Source of the DNA: a virus
DNA: 21,205 nt
IMG/VR virus record: IMGVR_UViG_3300032048_000640
Location: 1-21,205 of that record
Direction: 5' to 3' (one strand)
In this document: positions 1,260 through 15,926 of the stretch, piece by piece
How positions within the stretch are numbered: position 1 is the stretch's first letter
How the letters are laid out: each line of letters starts with the position of its first letter
The notes under the pieces: generated by a model
Told to the model about the DNA's origin: nothing
Databases searched by the model: none
What the model saw: the letters and a program-made list of their open reading frames with translations, nothing else
Program-made: the position numbers and the translations under genes

Positions 1260-1514
1260 TTAGGCAACAGTGTCCGGCTCTGGGTCAAGGTTCAGGGGGC
1301 GGAACTCGTTGGCTTGAAACGCACAGATGCCTTCGATGTGTTTCAGGGCGTTCAGCAGGATCTCTTTGTCGTCACGCAACCGTTTGATAAACACGTTTTG
1401 GTCGTCGAATTCGTGAACCAGCGCCGACAGGTACGGCATTCCGATCGACACGAAATCTTGCGGCGTTCCTGTTTCGATCCGTGCCCGAATGTAATCAATG
1501 GCAGATGTTTTCAT
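1260..1514 (-). CDS. Hypothetical protein, 84 aa
   Basis: The start is ATG at 1512-1514, whose ATGA overlaps the TGA stop of the ParB-like gene upstream; this four-base overlap is the reason for rejecting the much longer open frame that continues upstream as a shadow of that gene. The product begins MKTSAIDYIRARIE and is predicted to be mainly helical with mixed charge, with a single Cys (residue 64). No known domain is recognised. Its place between the ParB-like protein and the DNA methyltransferase, with zero or overlapping spacing on both sides, says it is translated as part of this unit. Function unknown. Confidence 0.7.
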   Translation of the reverse strand: MKTSAIDYIRARIETGTPQDFVSIGMPYLSALVHEFDDQNVFIKRLRDDKEILLNALKHIEGICAFQANEFRPLNLDPEPDTVA

Positions 1515-2026
1515 TTGTCTCTGGTGGGGGGTCGTTCGATGTGGATGTCTTCCCCGCCCGTTGATTCTACCGGAATCCATGCCCGGCTGTAAACATGCTC
1601 CTTGACTTTGCGCTTTTTGATGAGCGTCCCGTCGATCAACGTGTCGTATTCGTCGGCGGTCATGTTGAGTGTCGACATCAACTCCACGTCGGTGAACTGC
1701 TTCGTGGCCGCCAACGCCTGCAACGTTGTCGATAAACGCTTCGGCACGATCTGGCCTCTTGCCCGGTTCAAAACGATGTGGAGGATCATGGCCTCCACCG
1801 TTGAACAACTCACCCACCGCACTGGTATGGATAGTTCTAATTTTTGAGCGACTACCCAACGGTGGAAACCGTCGATGATCGTTCCGTCGTCCCGACACAC
1901 GAGCGGATACATGAACCCGTACTCCTTGACTGACCGTTGCATCAGCAGCAGGTCCGGGCGCAACACATGGTTGGTGCGCCAACCAGCGGGCCGCAAATTC
2001 ACGGTCTCTACGGTTTCGATCTCCAT
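1511..2026 (-). CDS. ParB-like (IbrB-like) nuclease-fold protein, 171 aa
   Basis: The N-terminal part fits the ParB/sulfiredoxin-type fold: a short beta stretch, a conserved RSVKEYGFMYPLV segment (about residues 31-43), then IIDGFHRWVVA (50-60), the counterpart of the ParB DGxHR box. An NRARGQ motif (87-92) follows, which I associate with the IbrB/SerK-like branch rather than chromosomal ParB. The C-terminal third is helical. ATG at 2026 is preferred over GTG at 2032 because AAGGTG lies at a proper distance from the ATG and almost touches the GTG; the GTG would add two residues. The gene lies directly behind a PAPS-reductase-like gene, the same arrangement as ibrA-ibrB in Escherichia coli. 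Biochemical activity in phages is not settled: nuclease, CTPase or free-serine kinase-like activities all exist in this fold. Confidence 0.85.
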   Translation of the reverse strand: MEIETVETVNLRPAGWRTNHVLRPDLLLMQRSVKEYGFMYPLVCRDDGTIIDGFHRWVVAQKLELSIPVRWVSCSTVEAMILHIVLNRARGQIVPKRLSTTLQALAATKQFTDVELMSTLNMTADEYDTLIDGTLIKKRKVKEHVYSRAWIPVESTGGEDIHIERPPTRDK

Positions 2027-2028
2027 GC

Positions 2029-3192
2029 TCACACCTTGTCGTCGATCAGGTCGAGGCCATCAGCGTCCGCTGCTGCCTGCAACGCCGCCATCCTCATCTT
2101 ATGCGAACGGGTCTTCGGCCCAACCGGCGACGGCGAAGTCAACCGAAACTCGTTCAGCAACAACGTCCGAACCAGATGATCTATCGGATACGAAAACGGG
2201 TCACCCGTATGCTTCTTGCGGTACTCGGCAACGAAACGTTTCGCATCTGTTGTCCTGCCGGGAGTCAGCATGTTCTCCACGACGCAACGCCGCACCCCGT
2301 CCCAACCTTGAAGGGCGTAACTGTTGATGAGTCGCTCCACGTTGAAATCGCCCCACAGGCGACGCTGAGCATCAATCTCCGGATACGCCCGATACAAGTT
2401 GTCAAAGAATTCCGGCTCCGTGCTGATCACATCAGACAGGCGGCGAGCCGCCACTGAATGCAACGGAATGCCGACACGGGTGTTCGCTCCCGACATGGCT
2501 GCATAGTCGTAGTAGGCGGTGTATCTGGCGTTGTGTTCCTCAGAGATGAACTTGAACACGTCGTCCGTTGTCCAGTCGTAAATCGGTTTCACCATCCGCA
2601 ACGGAATCGCTTTCGACAAACGGTACGGCCGGTTGATGTAGTTCTCGTGGAGTTTCTGAACGACGCTGCGGTACCGAATCATCGACTCGTTGGCCCGCAC
2701 CCCCGTCAGGAACGCCACCCGCCCCCGTTTGCCTTGCATCGTGTAATGATCGATCGGCAACGGAATCGCATCTTCACGGGTCAACCCGAAATGCTCCGCA
2801 GTGATTGCCCACGGCGGAATGTCACGCACAAGGCGACCCAGCCGTTCACGGGCAGCCGACCACAACAACGTGTAGTCGCGTCGACCCAACACCCACACCT
2901 CCTGCCCATGCGGCAGGCAATACCATTCCATGTCCACCCAGTCGTAGCCACGAACCTGCTCAAGGTGTTCCACCACCGCCGGGGACACCATCTCCTCGTC
3001 GCGGAAAATTACTTTCACCGGGCCAAGGCCGCGTTCCTCATGCACCTCTTTCGCAAGGTACAGAACCGCCGTCGAATCCTTGCCGCCCGAATACTGGACA
3101 CAGACCGTGTCGAACGTGTCGTACACATGCCGCATGCGTTGCCGTGCAGCGTCCACACACGAAATGTCGAGAAACATTCGGCGTCGTGCCAT
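2029..3192 (-). CDS. PAPS reductase-family PP-loop protein, IbrA-like (387 aa)
   Basis: Residues 34-41 read YSGGKDST, the PP-loop that binds ATP in the adenine-nucleotide alpha hydrolase/PAPS reductase superfamily. The protein activates a substrate by adenylation or handles a sulfur donor, as in DndC, CysH and IbrA. The length (387 aa) is longer than CysH (about 240) and fits the IbrA-type family with an added C-terminal domain. There is no obvious CysH-type C-terminal ECGxH motif, so assimilatory sulfate reduction is unlikely. ATG at 3190-3192 is taken as start, with a TTG codon immediately before it as an alternative. It lies 10 bases after the small upstream gene and two bases before the ParB-like ATG. 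The pairing with a ParB-like protein matches ibrA-ibrB, known from E. coli as regulators of immunoglobulin-binding protein genes; the molecular reaction is not known to me. Confidence 0.88.
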   Translation of the reverse strand: MARRRMFLDISCVDAARQRMRHVYDTFDTVCVQYSGGKDSTAVLYLAKEVHEERGLGPVKVIFRDEEMVSPAVVEHLEQVRGYDWVDMEWYCLPHGQEVWVLGRRDYTLLWSAARERLGRLVRDIPPWAITAEHFGLTREDAIPLPIDHYTMQGKRGRVAFLTGVRANESMIRYRSVVQKLHENYINRPYRLSKAIPLRMVKPIYDWTTDDVFKFISEEHNARYTAYYDYAAMSGANTRVGIPLHSVAARRLSDVISTEPEFFDNLYRAYPEIDAQRRLWGDFNVERLINSYALQGWDGVRRCVVENMLTPGRTTDAKRFVAEYRKKHTGDPFSYPIDHLVRTLLLNEFRLTSPSPVGPKTRSHKMRMAALQAAADADGLDLIDDKV

Positions 3193-3202
3193 CAATTTCC
3201 GA

Positions 3203-3499
3203 TCAGGTAGAGAAGTGGGGTGCCCGCCTCAAAATCATCGGCGTGCCTTCGCCCAGCCATGCACCAAACGTGTTGAACGACAGATAGTCAACAGCGTCCT
3301 CGTAGGACATGCCGTCGCCGCCGAACATCATTCGTTCGATCATCTTCTCTTCGTCATAAACCAGCACCGGAGGAAAGTTGATACGGGCAGCGTATCCGAT
3401 AACGCAACAATCGAAAAAGTCCCGAGCGCCGGGGCCGTCAAAAATGACGGCGTCAGGGTTGACCTCAGCGAAGTCGTCCCAAAACTCTCCTTTTCTCAT
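3203..3499 (-). CDS. Conserved small phage protein (98 aa)
   Basis: The C-terminal two thirds follow a pattern common in phage and some bacterial small proteins of unknown function: an F-D-x-C-x-I-G segment (residues 29-35), a VYDEEKMIERMM helix, then DGMSYEDAVDYLSFNTFGAW. I recognise the family shape but know no activity. The only available start is ATG at 3497-3499, and its A is the last base of the tmRNA CCA end. There is no Shine-Dalgarno before this ATG, because the upstream bases are the tmRNA acceptor stem, while an AAAGGAGAG sits just inside the coding sequence. Translation initiation is therefore odd and may depend on the unprocessed precursor or on a different mechanism. The gene is first in a run of closely spaced genes (PP-loop, ParB-like, 84 aa, methyltransferase). 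Confidence 0.75.
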   Translation of the reverse strand: MRKGEFWDDFAEVNPDAVIFDGPGARDFFDCCVIGYAARINFPPVLVYDEEKMIERMMFGGDGMSYEDAVDYLSFNTFGAWLGEGTPMILRRAPHFST

Positions 3500-3866
3500 G
3501 GTGGAGTCGGGGGGAATCGAACCCCCGTCCGTCGTGTTTCCGCATTTCCCCGTTCGACCGTCCCCGGTTTACGCCGGGTCGGGTGAAGCATTGCTTGCTG
3601 ATGCGACAGAGTGACCATGCTTCATAATCACTCCCTCATATGTTGTGTGCCCGTCTTTCCGGACTGTCGCCCGATTGGATTGACAAGGATCGGGAATCCC
3701 TGTGGGATTTAGATTAGGCAACCCTCCTCTTCGAGAAGAGCAGCGAATTCTGCATCCCAATCGCACGAGTATGAATCGGCGGTTGTTGTTGGTGCCCTGT
3801 TTAGCGAGTCTGAGCAACTCGGGTCGCGGGTAGTGCTTCTTCACGGCGTCGAAACCGATCGACCCC
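3499..3866 (-). ncRNA. ssrA: Transfer-messenger RNA (tmRNA) with encoded CCA
   Basis: The RNA has a tRNA-like end formed by a seven-pair acceptor stem (5' GGGGTCG against 3' CGACTCC), a discriminator A, an encoded CCA, and a T-arm of five G-C pairs around TTCGATT. The 5' end is followed by GGTTTCGAC, the conserved tmRNA 5' signature. The length of 368 bases is normal for a one-piece bacterial tmRNA. Between the tRNA-like ends lie a short reading frame (see tag entry), an adjacent CTCTT/AAGAG hairpin and regions able to form the usual pseudoknots. tmRNA works with SmpB to free stalled ribosomes and to tag the nascent chain; no smpB is seen here, so host SmpB would be used. Phage-encoded tmRNAs are known, for example in cluster C mycobacteriophages. 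The gene heads the leftward operon and has its own strong promoter. Confidence 0.95.
3709..3780 (-). other. tmRNA tag-peptide reading frame
   Basis: Inside the tmRNA, a frame starting with GCC at 3778-3780 encodes a 23-residue tag that begins ADSYSCD, ends EEEGCLI, and stops with TAA at 3709-3711. The frame was chosen because GCC GAT TCA (Ala-Asp-Ser) equals the opening of the Mycobacterium tag, which I recall as ADSHQRDYALAA, and because it sits just after an A-rich single-stranded stretch as expected for a resume site. The tag is about twice the usual length, strongly acidic (seven Asp or Glu residues), and lacks the usual C-terminal LAA degron. A competing frame offset by one base ends in KRRVA and has no resemblance at its start. 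Confidence 0.75.
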
Positions 3867-3994: not shown

Positions 3995-4019
3995 AACCCC
4001 TATCGAGGAGGCAGTACCT

Positions 4020-5453
4020 ATGAACAAATGGTTTGACGTAGACAAAGAAGGCTTCGGGCAACTCATGGCCGACCGACCAAAGGTCGCCATCCTGCACGAC
4101 CTCATCCAGAACATTCTCGACGAGGACGCCACCGTAGCCACCGTCACGCTGAAACCAATCAGCGGTCGACGCGGCCGGGCGCTCCTCACCGTCACCGACG
4201 ACGTACCCAACGGATTCGCCGACCTGCGCGACGCCTACACCCTGTACAAGGCATCCCGAAAGAAGAACGACCCCACCAAGCGCGGCCGCTTCAACGAAGG
4301 CGAAAAGTTCGTCCTATCGCAATGCGACGAGGCTGAAATCGTCACCACCACAGGCGGTGTCCGCTTCAACAAAGACGGCACCCGAACCTCGCTACGGCGC
4401 ACCACCGACCGCGGCTCAACCTTCACCGCCGTCATCCGACTCACCCACGACGAAGTCGCCACCATGTGCGCACAGGTGCAAGCGATGATCGTTCCCGAAG
4501 GAGTCTTCGTCCTCGTCAACGGAACCCCGCTCAAGGGACGCAACGCTATCCGCACCATCGAAGCAACCCTCCCCACCATCATCACCGACGAAGACGGCAA
4601 CCTCACCCGCACCCGGCGAGCCACCACCATCCACATCGACGAGTTGGGCGAAGGAGAAACCCCGCACCTATACGAAATGGGTATCCCTGTCGTCGAAATC
4701 GACACACCATGGCACATCGACGTACAACAGAAAGTGCCGTTGAATCGGGACCGCGACAACGTCACCCCCGCCTACCGGCGTGACCTGCTCGCCTACGTCC
4801 TTGACGAAACCGTCGACCTGCTCACCGAAGACACCGCCGCAGAATCGTGGGTCAAGGACGCCCTCCCTGCCGCCGAAGCAGACACCGTGAGACAGGCAAC
4901 CACGAAAATATTTGGCAAAGGCTGGGTCATCGGCACCCCCGCCGATCGTGAAGCCGACAAGAACGCCATCGCCAACGGCGTCACCGTCGTCGGCGGAGGG
5001 GCGTTGGGCAAAGACGCATGGGAGGCCGTCCGGGCAAGCGGATCAGCAAAACCGTCCGCCGACAAATACTCCCTTGGACACCGCACCGACCCCCGCGGGT
5101 ACAAACCCAAAATGGCAGAAGTGACCCCGTTCACCACCGCCGTCAAAAAGTACGCCCTCAAAGTCTGCAAGTTCCTTCTGGACGAGGACTACTTCGAAAT
5201 CGACCTACAGGACGACAGCCGCTTGCCGTACAGCGGCATGTACTGCGGGCGACGCATCGTCATCAACCTCCACTCGTACAAGAAGATCGAAGACAAAGAC
5301 GAGTTCGGTCGGGCACTCGACGACCTGCTGATCCACGAATGCGCCCATCGGTACAGCGGAGACCACCTCACGATGCAATACATCAAAGCCTGCACCCAAC
5401 TGGGAGCCAAACTGCGAAACCTTCCGACCCGGTGGCGGGCCGAGGTTGGCTGA
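4020..5453 (+). CDS. GHKL (Hsp90-like) ATPase with C-terminal metzincin-like zinc site (477 aa)
   Basis: The N-terminal ~140 residues carry GHKL ATPase motifs in order: an N-box like DLIQNILDE (27-35, Asn31 for Mg, Asp34), TVTDDVPNGF (57-66) in place of the usual DxGxG, and RGRFNEGEKF (88-97) as a lid-type G2 box. A middle region includes QKVPLNRDRDNV (237-248), which recalls the transducer-type loop of Hsp90/MutL/gyrase B proteins. The C-terminus contains HECAHRYSGDH (439-449): His439, His443 and His449 are spaced as in the metzincin HExxHxxGxxH zinc motif, with Glu440 as candidate general base, although the Gly is shifted by one position. A strong GAGGAGG at 4005-4011 fixes the ATG. The gene is alone on the plus strand between two leftward units. 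Role unknown; ATP-driven peptidase, chaperone or defence/counter-defence protein are possible. The ATPase call is firmer than the peptidase call. Confidence 0.82.
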   Translation: MNKWFDVDKEGFGQLMADRPKVAILHDLIQNILDEDATVATVTLKPISGRRGRALLTVTDDVPNGFADLRDAYTLYKASRKKNDPTKRGRFNEGEKFVLSQCDEAEIVTTTGGVRFNKDGTRTSLRRTTDRGSTFTAVIRLTHDEVATMCAQVQAMIVPEGVFVLVNGTPLKGRNAIRTIEATLPTIITDEDGNLTRTRRATTIHIDELGEGETPHLYEMGIPVVEIDTPWHIDVQQKVPLNRDRDNVTPAYRRDLLAYVLDETVDLLTEDTAAESWVKDALPAAEADTVRQATTKIFGKGWVIGTPADREADKNAIANGVTVVGGGALGKDAWEAVRASGSAKPSADKYSLGHRTDPRGYKPKMAEVTPFTTAVKKYALKVCKFLLDEDYFEIDLQDDSRLPYSGMYCGRRIVINLHSYKKIEDKDEFGRALDDLLIHECAHRYSGDHLTMQYIKACTQLGAKLRNLPTRWRAEVG

Positions 5454-7507: not shown

Positions 7508-7738
7508 ATGCCCAACCCCGATGCAATACTCGCCCTCCGCCAAGCGATCATCAACGTTCTCATCATCATGGGGGAAGTCGAAGAAGTCGAAGATGCGGCT
7601 CGCCGCACCGAACTCGAAGACGAAATGGGCAGGATTGCTGACACGTTCCTTGAGATGCTGAACGTCGAAATCACGGAGGCAGAGATCGACAACGAAACGG
7701 CCGTCATCAACTTCACCGTTTCTGTTCCAGCGTTCTAA
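7508..7738 (+). CDS. Small very acidic protein, 76 aa
   Basis: ATG at 7508 has AGGAAA about seven bases upstream. The product contains 17 Asp/Glu against four Arg and no Lys, is mostly helical in pattern (an Ile/Leu-rich first helix, then a long EVEEVEDAARRTELEDEM stretch), and ends with a beta-like hydrophobic tail. No family is recognised. It is the only plus-strand gene between two leftward units; it is divergent from ssb and overlaps the ParB-like stop by four bases. The strong negative charge would be consistent with a DNA mimic or a protein-binding inhibitor, but this is inference only. The reverse frame in this interval is a shadow. Confidence 0.65.
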   Translation: MPNPDAILALRQAIINVLIIMGEVEEVEDAARRTELEDEMGRIADTFLEMLNVEITEAEIDNETAVINFTVSVPAF

Positions 7739-8472
7739 TCTGAACTCACGTTCTCTCTGACAAACGCTATGACCTGTTCAGCCGAGGACGGCAGATTCGA
7801 ATAGGGCGGCACGCTCTTCAAATAACGCAGAAACGCATACCAGTCGCGTTGCTGTTCGGCATCATCAAACACAAGCGTGTACTGAACGACAGCCTTCGCT
7901 CCAGCCACCCCGGCGGAAGTCGCCCCCTGCGTCACCAACGTTTCCGTGTCCGTCGTCGCAATCGTCGGACCCTCCTCAGGGGAAGTAATCAGAACCGGAG
8001 CAGACCAGCCCGTATCGGCATCGCCGGTATCAACCTTGACCGGCTCATCCATCAACGCGACTTCGAAGTCATCCCAGCCCAACGAAGTAAACAGGTCGGG
8101 CATATCATCCATCACCGTCGTAAGCATGTCGAGCAGCAGTTGTTGATCTGAAAATCCGAGTTCAGACGTTCGATTGTCGGTCAAAGCAAACGCCACCGCT
8201 TTGTCATGGTCAAAAGGAACGTTCAGCACGGCGATATGCGTCCAACCAAGTTGCTTGGCTGCCGCCAACTGGTGGTTGCCTGCGATGATCGTGCCGGTTC
8301 CGTCCTTGTTGTCAACAGCAACAATCGGTTTGACCTGTCCGAACTCGGCATAGGAAGCAGCGATCGAGTCCACGTTCCCTTGCCGTGGGTTGCTCGGTAG
8401 AGGAATAAGTTCGTCGACATGCACCAACATCCCCTGAAGGGATTCGACAACGTTGTGAACTGGATCAGTCAT
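7735..8472 (-). CDS. ParB-like nuclease domain protein (245 aa)
   Basis: The N-terminal ~110 residues match the ParB N-terminal domain: LIPLPSNPRQGNVDSIAASY (22-41), FGQVKPIVAV (44-53) and IIAGNHQLAAAKQLGW (62-77), the last being the phage version of the GERRxxAA box with Asn-His in place of Glu-Arg. The rest is acidic and low in known motifs. Stand-alone proteins of this type are common in phages, often close to methyltransferases or recombination genes; nuclease or CTP-binding activity has been shown for relatives but is not certain here. The ATG overlaps the upstream stop as ATGA, placing it as the last gene of the large leftward DNA-metabolism operon. It is clearly different from the shorter ParB-like protein at 1.5-2.0 kb. 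Confidence 0.88.
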   Translation of the reverse strand: MTDPVHNVVESLQGMLVHVDELIPLPSNPRQGNVDSIAASYAEFGQVKPIVAVDNKDGTGTIIAGNHQLAAAKQLGWTHIAVLNVPFDHDKAVAFALTDNRTSELGFSDQQLLLDMLTTVMDDMPDLFTSLGWDDFEVALMDEPVKVDTGDADTGWSAPVLITSPEEGPTIATTDTETLVTQGATSAGVAGAKAVVQYTLVFDDAEQQRDWYAFLRYLKSVPPYSNLPSSAEQVIAFVRENVSSD

Positions 8473-13956: not shown

Positions 13957-14157
13957 TCACGATTCCTTAGGAGGCTTCGATTCCTTGGGAGGCTTCGGCT
14001 TGTCGCCAGCAAAGAGTTCCAGAAGAAAGTCTTCCTGCGGGGGAAGCCCCAACCTTTTCCTCTCTTCACGAACTTCGGCGCGTGCCATCTCCCGGTATTT
14101 CTCCCCGGCGTCGGGCTTTGAAAAGTCGGGGGGACCTGCTGGATACACCATCATCAA
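13957..14157 (-). CDS. Small Pro/Lys-tailed protein, 66 aa
   Basis: The product starts MMMVYPAGPPDF, has a short charged helix (EMARAEVREERKRLGLPP) and ends with two copies of the hexapeptide KPPKES, encoded by an 18-base tandem repeat. Three ATG codons in a row (14157, 14154, 14151) make the exact start uncertain; the first overlaps the stop of the metallopeptidase-like gene. No domain is recognised. The linkage suggests co-expression with the large upstream protein. Confidence 0.62.
   Translation of the reverse strand: MMMVYPAGPPDFSKPDAGEKYREMARAEVREERKRLGLPPQEDFLLELFAGDKPKPPKESKPPKES
13961..13996. repeat. 18-base tandem repeat, two copies
   Basis: GATTCCTTAGGAGGCTTC at 13961-13978 is followed directly by a second copy at 13979-13996 that differs at one base. 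It encodes the two KPPKES units at the end of the 66-aa protein on the minus strand. Confidence 0.85.
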
Positions 14158-15926
14158 CCATCTCCATCGGGGAAGAATTCGTCCTCTATGCCTACTATGC
14201 CCTTTAGGGCTTCCCGATTGGCTTCGGAAAGACCTGCTATCAACTCGCGTATTGTGTTACGCATGTCTTCGAATCCCAAGCCTGCCTCTTCCAACGCCCC
14301 TACGAATGTATCCAGACCACCCCCCGATTCCAAGTGTCCGTGTAGCGTATTCATAAACTGTGCTGCTTCTCGCCAGTTGTCTGAAACGTGTGTGGCCTCG
14401 TCATAGTCCCTGTTGGTAGTAAGGGCAAACACTTCTGAAAACATCTCTGCCGGTTCGCTAAATCCGTACATGGACGGTGTTATTGGTGAGACGATTGTCG
14501 CAAGTTCTTCTGCCGTGCTCATGCCCGCTTCGTTGGCTGAACGTGTAAAGAATTCAAAATTCTTGACCATTATCTCGGTACCTTCGCCTTCGTAGAGATT
14601 GCCGCTGACAATGTTGAAGGCGTCCTTCGGATCGAGTAGTTCGTCATAGTCGCTGTCTTGCCACGCCCGGAGCCGCGTCAGTGACCACATGCAGTTGAAA
14701 ATATCACTCGTCTCCATGTCCGATGCCGCCATCAGCGCCTTGTCCAGATGGTGCGCATACTCGTGGCGGACTATCCCGTCGGTTCCATTGGTCGAAGTCC
14801 ACCCCCCAACGTTTGTTTTCCCGAATGCCTCCTTATGGGTAAGTGCCCTTAGTTTGAGTTCTCCTAAACCGACCTCGGCTACCTTCCCAAGTTGCCCACC
14901 CGATATGTTCACTCCTGCCGTCCCCTCGTCTCCCTCCATAGCAGCGAACACAAAGTTTTTTGCTAAAGACATGTGCTTTGTGCCTGCTGCCGCTATAGCA
15001 TTTCGCATCTTATCTTCGCCATATATTCCCTCCATCATGGTTTCGAACTCCACATATACGGCATCTGGAATGTCCCACATCTCCGTGGCTCCGTGCGCGC
15101 TAGCACCAAACATGTAGTCGTTGAGGATGGCTCTTTCCTTATCTGCATCTCCTTTGGCATCGAGCCAGCCCTCTATGATCTCTGCCATCTCGTTCAATCC
15201 CGAATTACGCAAATTCTCGACATACGCCTTCGATTTGCCTTTCTTGGTTCTCATCTGAAATCCACTTTGGGCGTTCTTCAATATGGAGTCAACGGCCACG
15301 CGAAAGTCCTCAACGAGCGCCTCACGGCGCTCAGATGACACTGACGGAGCGTCGGCATATTCAGGAGAATCAATATCGATTCGCTGCTTCTCGTCCTTTT
15401 TGAACAACTCCTTGTGCCAATGATCATGGCTTTTGGGGACACCGGGTTTGGCTGCCACATCGTCCGGTGAATCTATATCTCTCGTTGCTTGTACCTTTAC
15501 GTCTGGGGCGCGGGTGATGTCACCGACAACGGTGCGTTGGTCGCCAATCGTGCCTCGCGTTGACTCCAACGTTCCATGCCGTGACTCCAACGTTCCATAC
15601 CGGGTACCGAGCGTGCCGGTCATCCCACCCAACGTGTTAGCCCGAAACCCTTGCTTGGGGGCAGCCGCAGTGGGCGGCTTGCCACGCAACGCTTTGGGTG
15701 TGTACTCCTTGATGGGGCTGCCCTTGGCATCCACCATGCGAGCACCGGACGGCAATGCTGTCAGAAGGGCGTCGAGGACGTTGCCTGCCGCATCGACAAA
15801 ATTCGCACCCGCCGGGCGTTCCCAAATCGTGCCCTCTTGCACGATGCCGTCGTTGTCGGCATCGATGGCCTTGGGCTTGAAGGGCGCTGGTCGTGGTGCC
15901 CAGACTTTGGTTTGGATTTGGGTCAT
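14154..15926 (-). CDS. Large phage protein with EF-hand-like loop and HExxH metallopeptidase site (590 aa)
   Basis: Near the N-terminus DADNDGIVQEGT (22-33) matches a calcium-binding EF-hand/dockerin-type loop; similar D-x-D-x-D-G elements occur in actinophage MuF-type head proteins. Residues 104-131 form short repeats of the type GTLESRH. After a helical middle region comes GIVRHEYAHHLDKAL (384-398): His388, Glu389 and His392 make an HExxH zinc site. About 100 residues later, EPAEMFSEVFAL (491-502) offers Glu495 or Glu498 as the third ligand, as in gluzincins such as the anthrax lethal factor-type family. It may be a virion-associated or injected protease, or a toxin-like domain on a head-associated protein; structural role and substrate are unknown. 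ATG at 15926 lies seven bases after the dehydratase stop. Confidence 0.8.
   Translation of the reverse strand: MTQIQTKVWAPRPAPFKPKAIDADNDGIVQEGTIWERPAGANFVDAAGNVLDALLTALPSGARMVDAKGSPIKEYTPKALRGKPPTAAAPKQGFRANTLGGMTGTLGTRYGTLESRHGTLESTRGTIGDQRTVVGDITRAPDVKVQATRDIDSPDDVAAKPGVPKSHDHWHKELFKKDEKQRIDIDSPEYADAPSVSSERREALVEDFRVAVDSILKNAQSGFQMRTKKGKSKAYVENLRNSGLNEMAEIIEGWLDAKGDADKERAILNDYMFGASAHGATEMWDIPDAVYVEFETMMEGIYGEDKMRNAIAAAGTKHMSLAKNFVFAAMEGDEGTAGVNISGGQLGKVAEVGLGELKLRALTHKEAFGKTNVGGWTSTNGTDGIVRHEYAHHLDKALMAASDMETSDIFNCMWSLTRLRAWQDSDYDELLDPKDAFNIVSGNLYEGEGTEIMVKNFEFFTRSANEAGMSTAEELATIVSPITPSMYGFSEPAEMFSEVFALTTNRDYDEATHVSDNWREAAQFMNTLHGHLESGGGLDTFVGALEEAGLGFEDMRNTIRELIAGLSEANREALKGIVGIEDEFFPDGDG
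15561..15602. repeat. 21-base tandem repeat within the metallopeptidase-like gene
   Basis: Two copies (15561-15581 and 15582-15602) of a 21-base unit starting TGACTCCAACGTTCCAT differ at one position. They encode two of about four seven-residue units (GTLxxRx) in residues 104-131 of the minus-strand protein. The outer units are more diverged. Confidence 0.85.

What the first reader, a model, noticed from the sequence alone, without database searches (positions are those of the whole stretch)
4020..5453. GHKL ATPase joined to a metzincin-like zinc site on a lone, opposite-strand gene
The N-terminus has GHKL-type boxes (QNILDE, DDVPNGF, GRFNEGEKF) and the C-terminus has HECAHRYSGDH, with the three His at metzincin spacing. 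I know of no standard phage family with both an Hsp90-like ATPase and a zinc peptidase site. The gene stands alone on the plus strand with a strong ribosome site next to a tmRNA, the usual place for accessory functions. It could be an ATP-gated protease, a defence or anti-defence factor, or a protein remodeller.
Basis: partly seen in the sequence, partly recalled or inferred. Interest (0 to 1): 0.8.

Follow-up and report, generated by a model that had tools for sequence, protein, structure and literature searches.

The report
Phage ATPase fused to zinc protease
This phage gene encodes an Hsp90/MutL-type ATP-driven clamp fused to a small zinc protease of the Wss1/SPRTN kind, an unnamed architecture that turns out to be conserved in about 200 viral contigs plus plasmids and bacterial genomes, and that may be an ATP-controlled protease unlike the known AAA+ ones.

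Summary
Window 4020-5453 (+) encodes a 477-aa protein. Its N-terminal GHKL ATPase plus transducer module resembles Hsp90/TRAP1, MORC and MutL by fold. Its C-terminal domain carries HExxH plus a third His. It is not an isolated oddity. A profile search found 201 viral contigs (80 fetched) and 42 genome contigs encoding relatives, and plasmids and a 485-kb huge phage also carry it. In 82 aligned members the ATP-site Asn31, Asp34, Asp60, Gly94 and Lys96 and the zinc-site His439, Glu440, His443 and His449 are invariant.

One detail of the reading is wrong: the zinc domain is not a metzincin. Its loop length varies, it lacks the metzincin Gly and a Met-turn, and its predicted fold matches minigluzincins, M48 BepA and SPRTN. 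The His spacing is exactly that of yeast Wss1.

No Pfam, NCBIfam, PADLOC or PDB family covers the fusion, and I found no paper describing it. Most likely it is a stand-alone, ATP-gated (dimer-clamp) metalloprotease used by mobile elements against protein targets; the substrate is unknown. In the window's own clade the presumed catalytic Glu27 of the ATPase is Asp. ATP-protease coupling is inferred, not shown.

The parts
4006..4011 (+). Shine-Dalgarno AGGAGG, 8 nt upstream of the ATG
   Evidence: read directly in the sequence
4020..5453 (+). GHKL ATPase - minigluzincin fusion protein, 477 aa
   Evidence: full-length homologues; AF2 model pLDDT 92.8 / pTM 0.82
4020..4499 (+). GHKL ATP-binding domain (residues about 1-160)
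   Evidence: HATPase_c_3 matches 65 of 82 homologues, best 3e-8; Foldseek PDB hits Hsp90/TRAP1 2e-11, MORC 1e-7, MutL 7e-7, GyrB
4098..4121 (+). N-box, residues 27-34 (D27 in place of the usual catalytic Glu; N31 and D34 invariant)
   Evidence: position 27 is E in 74/82, D in 8/82; N31 and D34 82/82; D27 confined to the window's clade
4197..4217 (+). Motif II DDVPNGF, residues 60-66 (variant of DxGxG; canonical DNGSG in cyanobacterial relatives)
4281..4310 (+). ATP-lid / G2 box RGRFNEGEKF, residues 88-97
   Evidence: R88 G89 R90 G94 K96 invariant
4500..4754 (+). Transducer-like (S5-type) domain, residues about 161-245, with Q237-K238 loop and R245
   Evidence: Q237 and R245 82/82, K238 80/82; beta-rich in the model; S5-type assignment inferred from the Hsp90/MORC/MutL fold match
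4755..5069 (+). Helical connector, residues about 246-350
   Evidence: secondary structure of the model
5106..5450 (+). C-terminal minigluzincin (WLM/YgjP/SprT-like) zinc peptidase domain, residues about 363-477
   Evidence: separate AF2 model pLDDT 91.8; Foldseek selecase/jannalysin/abylysin/BepA/SPRTN; WLM and YgjP-like Pfam matches in homologues
5334..5366 (+). Zinc site HECAHRYSGDH, residues 439-449 (H439, E440, H443, H449)
   Evidence: invariant in 82 of 82; present in all 94 non-redundant relatives with an intact C-terminus

Best explanation
A stand-alone cytosolic protease whose activity is controlled by ATP. The N-terminal GHKL domain binds ATP and, with the transducer domain, is expected to close as a dimeric clamp, as in MutL, MORC, GyrB and Hsp90. 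Closing captures a protein, or a protein on DNA, and delivers it to the C-terminal minigluzincin zinc site, where Glu440 activates water for peptide-bond cleavage. Phages and other mobile elements carry it as a single-gene accessory, most likely to remove host or DNA-bound proteins that impede takeover. Shown here: architecture, residue conservation, folds by prediction, distribution. Inferred: ATP hydrolysis, dimerisation, zinc binding, proteolysis, coupling of the two domains, and the target.
For: Full-length conservation of both halves in a broadly diverged family: 82 members, 32-61% identity to the query, ATP-site and zinc-site residues all invariant. Three of 97 non-redundant relatives lack the zinc motif and all three are shortened or visibly disrupted frames. 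High-confidence models. GHKL-type fold hits: Hsp90/TRAP1, MORC2/3, MutL, GyrB, rIIA. Peptidase fold hits: minigluzincins, BepA, SPRTN, and a viral SprT-like protein. His spacing identical to the solved Wss1 site His115/Glu116/His119/His125 (PMC5557861). Lys238 sits where a transducer-loop lysine is expected (80/82). No conserved neighbour gene, hence probably self-sufficient.
Against: No experiment. Fold hits of the peptidase domain are individually weak (best E 0.012, probability 1.00). The window's clade has Asp27 instead of the catalytic Glu, which may slow or abolish hydrolysis. The phage branch has a non-canonical motif II (DDxPxGF). Nothing shows that the two domains communicate.
Confidence: 0.55

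Rival explanations
1. A DNA-clamp protease: the GHKL module clamps DNA as in MORC and MutL, and the SPRTN/Wss1-like domain cleaves proteins crosslinked to or stalled on DNA, so it is a phage DNA-protein roadblock remover.
For: Wss1-identical His spacing and SPRTN among the fold hits (6mdx); GHKL-S5 relatives with DNA roles (MORC, MutL, GyrB); the window's gene lies in a phage record with SSB, Rad52-like, RuvC-like and PD-(D/E)XK genes.
Against: Mean net charge of the regions after residue 160 is negative (about -8.5 in all), with no obvious DNA-binding extension or zinc finger; neighbours across the family are not visibly enriched for DNA repair genes; YgjP and minigluzincins without known DNA roles are equally close.
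Confidence: 0.2
2. A host-conflict factor of the rIIA type: a GHKL ATPase with a C-terminal effector that counters exclusion or defence systems; the peptidase destroys a defence protein.
For: rIIA proteins (GHKL plus variable C-terminus) appear among the viral fold hits and are described as counter-defence (PMC7824862); patchy accessory distribution and viral/cellular interleaving in the tree; single-gene setting.
Against: The C-terminus here is conserved, not variable; no PADLOC family matches the window protein; no consistent link to defence genes (one plasmid copy lies near SIR2-HerA).
Confidence: 0.2
3. A non-proteolytic protein remodeller or sensor in which the zincin fold serves for binding only, or in which the window's copy has lost ATP turnover (Asp27) and works as a nucleotide-binding switch.
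For: Asp27 instead of Glu in all eight members of the window's clade; motif II is unusual in the phage branch.
Against: H439, E440, H443 and H449 are invariant in 82 of 82; a non-catalytic domain would not be expected to keep Glu440 in every member.
Confidence: 0.1
4. A virion-maturation or virion-delivered protease.
For: Phage zincins are proposed to process virion proteins in jumbo phages (PMC7824862).
Against: Also occurs in plasmid and bacterial contexts; terminase or head genes adjoin it in only a few loci.
Confidence: 0.05

Closest known systems
Wss1 / SPRTN / WLM and SprT-like proteases (minigluzincins: abylysin, jannalysin, selecase; YgjP)
   Same: Small zincin domain; HExxH plus third His, spacing identical to Wss1 His115/119/125; predicted fold; weak Pfam WLM and YgjP matches in homologues
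   Different: Fused behind a GHKL ATPase; to my knowledge none of the known ones carries its own ATPase in the same chain
Hsp90/TRAP1, MORC, MutL, GyrB (GHKL-S5 ATPases)
   Same: GHKL ATP site with N-box and lid glycines, transducer loop Lys, overall fold
   Different: Motif II is DDxPxGF in the phage branch; C-terminal domain is a peptidase rather than a dimerisation, DNA-binding or endonuclease domain
Phage rIIA proteins
   Same: N-terminal GHKL ATPase followed by another domain; phage accessory gene (PMC7824862)
   Different: rIIA C-terminus is described as highly variable, with no described zinc-peptidase site
FtsH/Yme1 ATP-dependent zinc proteases
   Same: ATPase and HExxH zinc protease in one chain (from established knowledge)
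   Different: FtsH uses an AAA+ hexamer and is membrane bound; here the motor is GHKL, and no membrane segment is evident in the model's fold
Polyvalent-protein MPTases of phages and conjugative elements
   Same: Zincin domains in mobile-element conflict proteins (PMC5512222)
   Different: No GHKL domain is mentioned in that paper; the partner domains listed are different

Membership tests
GHKL ATPase superfamily | N-box with Asn (and Glu four residues before it), Asp of motif II, glycine-rich ATP lid | tested here: met
   N31, D34, D60, G65, G89, G94, K96 82/82; E27 74/82 but Asp in the window protein; HATPase_c_3 in 65/82 homologues
GHKL ATPase superfamily | Bergerat fold | tested here: met
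   Predicted model matches Hsp90, MORC, MutL, GyrB
GHKL-S5 (MutL/GyrB/MORC/Hsp90) clamp | Transducer domain with a Lys/Arg reaching the gamma phosphate | tested here: inconclusive
   Q237 82/82 and K238 80/82 in the right region; geometry not measured
GHKL-S5 (MutL/GyrB/MORC/Hsp90) clamp | ATP-dependent dimerisation | not testable with these tools
   no complex prediction or biochemistry available
Metzincins | HExxHxxGxxH with conserved Gly | tested here: not met
   Position 446 is S/E/A/V/C; His2-His3 loop varies from 4 to 8 residues
Metzincins | Met-turn downstream of the zinc site | tested here: not met
   No column after H449 has Met in more than 12 of 82 members; about 30 residues remain
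Minigluzincin / WLM-YgjP-SprT zincins | HExxH and third ligand shortly downstream | tested here: met
   His spacing identical to Wss1; invariant in intact members
Minigluzincin / WLM-YgjP-SprT zincins | Minimal zincin fold | tested here: met
   Foldseek: selecase 1.2e-2 (prob 1.00), jannalysin, abylysin, BepA, SPRTN 6mdx; E-values modest
SPRTN/Wss1 DNA-protein crosslink proteases | DNA-dependent proteolysis | not testable with these tools
   no biochemistry
Hsp90 chaperones | Hsp90 C-terminal dimerisation domain | tested here: not met
   C-terminus is the zinc-peptidase domain; no Hsp90 family match
Known anti-phage defence families (PADLOC) | Match to a defence model | tested here: not met
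   Window protein 0 families; relatives only weakly match TmtA through the ATPase part

The most novel reading that the evidence does not exclude
The first energy-dependent protease powered by a GHKL (Hsp90/MutL-type) clamp instead of an AAA+ ring, spread among large and small environmental phages, plasmids and bacteria as a one-gene system.
Probability: 0.35. Interest if true: 0.88.

Novelty: new variant of a known kind. Interest (0 to 1): 0.7.

Why it matters
Known ATP-driven proteases use AAA+ rings (established knowledge). A conserved one-chain pairing of a GHKL clamp ATPase with a Wss1/SPRTN-type protease would be a different way to power or gate proteolysis. With about 200 viral carriers and almost no annotation, it is a sizeable unnamed family of phage accessory proteins that can be tested directly with point mutants at Asn31, Glu440 and Asp27.

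Tried and rejected
Metzincin assignment: rejected (no conserved Gly, no Met-turn, variable loop, gluzincin fold hits). Chance HExxH: rejected (invariant in 82 homologues). Fusion by assembly error: rejected (the same architecture in phage, plasmid and genome records from independent sources). Search for an operon partner by clustering neighbour proteins in 97 non-redundant groups and by Pfam/PHROG scans of neighbours: no common partner; the most recurrent clusters reach 5 groups. Neighbour genes were called by a simple longest-ORF rule, so short partners could be missed. Diadenylate-cyclase/CHAT neighbourhood: seen only in three closely related Picosynechococcus plasmids, not general. tmRNA neighbourhood: in the 27 relatives' loci scanned no tmRNA was found, so it is probably incidental. 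PDB sequence search with the profile gave only weak matches. Literature searches found no description of the fusion; the library holds only open-licence papers. First genome-contig scan with the single sequence found nothing; the alignment query found 42 loci.

Full report
Observation. The ORF at 4020-5453 (+) encodes 477 aa exactly as described. AGGAGG stands 8 nt upstream of the ATG and a tmRNA is predicted on the other strand at 3499-3866. The GHKL-like boxes and HECAHRYSGDH are at residues 27-34, 60-66, 88-97 and 439-449. The window is a whole IMG/VR virus record of 21,205 bases of a tailed phage whose terminase is nearest, at 43% identity, to Gordonia phages. The gene is the only clear plus-strand gene in a minus-strand block of about 18 kb; both ends of the record carry plus-strand ORFs.

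Relatives. The single sequence matches no Pfam family, no NCBIfam model above cut-off, no PADLOC model and no PDB sequence; phrog_6077, a family of unknown function, matches weakly. tblastn found one huge phage (LR745208, 485 kb, 37% over 98%) and six plasmids. A profile of eight members then found 201 viral contigs, of which 80 were kept, and 42 genome contigs. Carriers include viral contigs of 221-435 kb, each with one copy, Planctomycetota, Pseudomonadota, Acidobacteriota and cyanobacteria, and archaeal and Patescibacteria bins. In a tree of 116 sequences viral and cellular members interleave (14 label changes, at least 8 forced by well supported branches); the window protein falls in a well supported clade of eight viral proteins.

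Conservation. In an alignment of 82 non-redundant members the invariant positions are those expected for both active sites: N31, D34, D60, G65, R88, G89, R90, G94, K96, R200, Q237, R245 and H439, E440, H443, H449. K238 is kept in 80. E27, the position of the GHKL catalytic Glu (four residues before the N-box Asn, from established knowledge of GyrB, MutL and Hsp90), is Glu in 74 and Asp in eight, and those eight are exactly the window's clade. The phage branch has DDxPxGF where the cyanobacterial relatives have the canonical DNGSG.

The zinc domain is not a metzincin. All 94 non-redundant relatives with an intact C-terminus keep HExxH and the third His, but the intervening loop is 5 residues in 83, 4 in six, 7 in three and 8 in two. 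The metzincin Gly is not conserved and no Met-turn exists in the roughly 30 residues that follow. Pfam WLM (6 of 82, best 1.5e-4) and YgjP-like (2 of 82, best 1.6e-4) are the only recurring peptidase matches. The domain folded alone with pLDDT 91.8 and matched minigluzincins (selecase, jannalysin, abylysin), M48 BepA and SPRTN in the PDB. Yeast Wss1 binds zinc with His115, His119 and His125 with Glu116 as base (PMC5557861), the same spacing as H439, H443, H449 and E440 here. A sequence-only search did list myroilysin (E 0.022-0.032), a weak alignment that ends at the third His and so does not reach a Met-turn.

The ATPase half. The full-length model has mean pLDDT 92.8 and pTM 0.82. Its best PDB matches are Hsp90 and TRAP1 (2e-11), MORC3/MORC2 (about 1.6e-7), MutL (7.5e-7) and GyrB/topoisomerases. 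In the viral library rIIA proteins appear below an unnamed close relative (A0A1B1ITP9, TM-score 0.81 by target length). HATPase_c_3 matches 65 of 82 homologues.

Genomic setting. Clustering of neighbouring proteins over 97 non-redundant groups found no partner present in more than five. Pfam and PHROG scans of adjacent genes gave only one to four matches per family. The protein therefore probably works alone. In Picosynechococcus plasmids it sits beside a diadenylate cyclase and CHAT genes, a local arrangement.

Interpretation. Two enzymatic sites are strictly conserved together across large divergence. This argues that both activities are used in one act: ATP-controlled proteolysis by a clamp-type enzyme. 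What is shown is architecture, conservation and predicted fold. What is inferred is catalysis, dimerisation, coupling and target. The Asp27 of the window's clade warns that in this particular protein hydrolysis may be slow, with ATP binding used as a switch. The rival roles (DNA-protein roadblock removal, rIIA-like counter-defence, virion processing) cannot be separated by sequence; the negative net charge of most of the chain and the lack of DNA-repair neighbours speak mildly against the DNA-bound version.

Novelty. Both domains are known; the pairing is not covered by any library or paper that I could search. I rate it a new variant of a known kind, with a real chance that it founds a distinct class of energy-dependent protease.

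Noticed in passing
window 14154-15926 (-): A 590-aa phage protein with HEYAHHLD (HExxH at about 14765), a second putative zincin, with no Pfam or PHROG match.
   Followed up: no
window 3499-3866 (-): tmRNA gene in a phage, tag ADSYSCDWDAEFAALLEEEGCLI.
   Followed up: partly
L007:5386-7542, L008:5388-7539, L048:6387-8536: In Picosynechococcus plasmids the family gene directly follows a diadenylate cyclase (DAC) gene, with sigma-70 and CHAT-TPR genes nearby.
   Followed up: partly
L011:4029-5369 (-): A second gene with GHKL-like boxes (ELIQNAKDE, GQFGEGLNLA) lies close to the family gene, in a neighbour cluster seen in five groups; a separate putative GHKL ORF lies at L059:7241-8680.
   Followed up: no
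L069, L126: tRNA-Pyl(CTA)-like calls in contigs of 286 and 435 kb, possibly suppressor tRNAs for TAG recoding.
   Followed up: no
L005:1770-8000: Rhodovastum plasmid copy lies a few kb from a SIR2-HerA anti-phage pair.
   Followed up: no
window 2029-3195 (-), 1511-2032 (-), 7735-8472 (-): PAPS-reductase-family gene and two ParB-like genes in the same phage.
   Followed up: no
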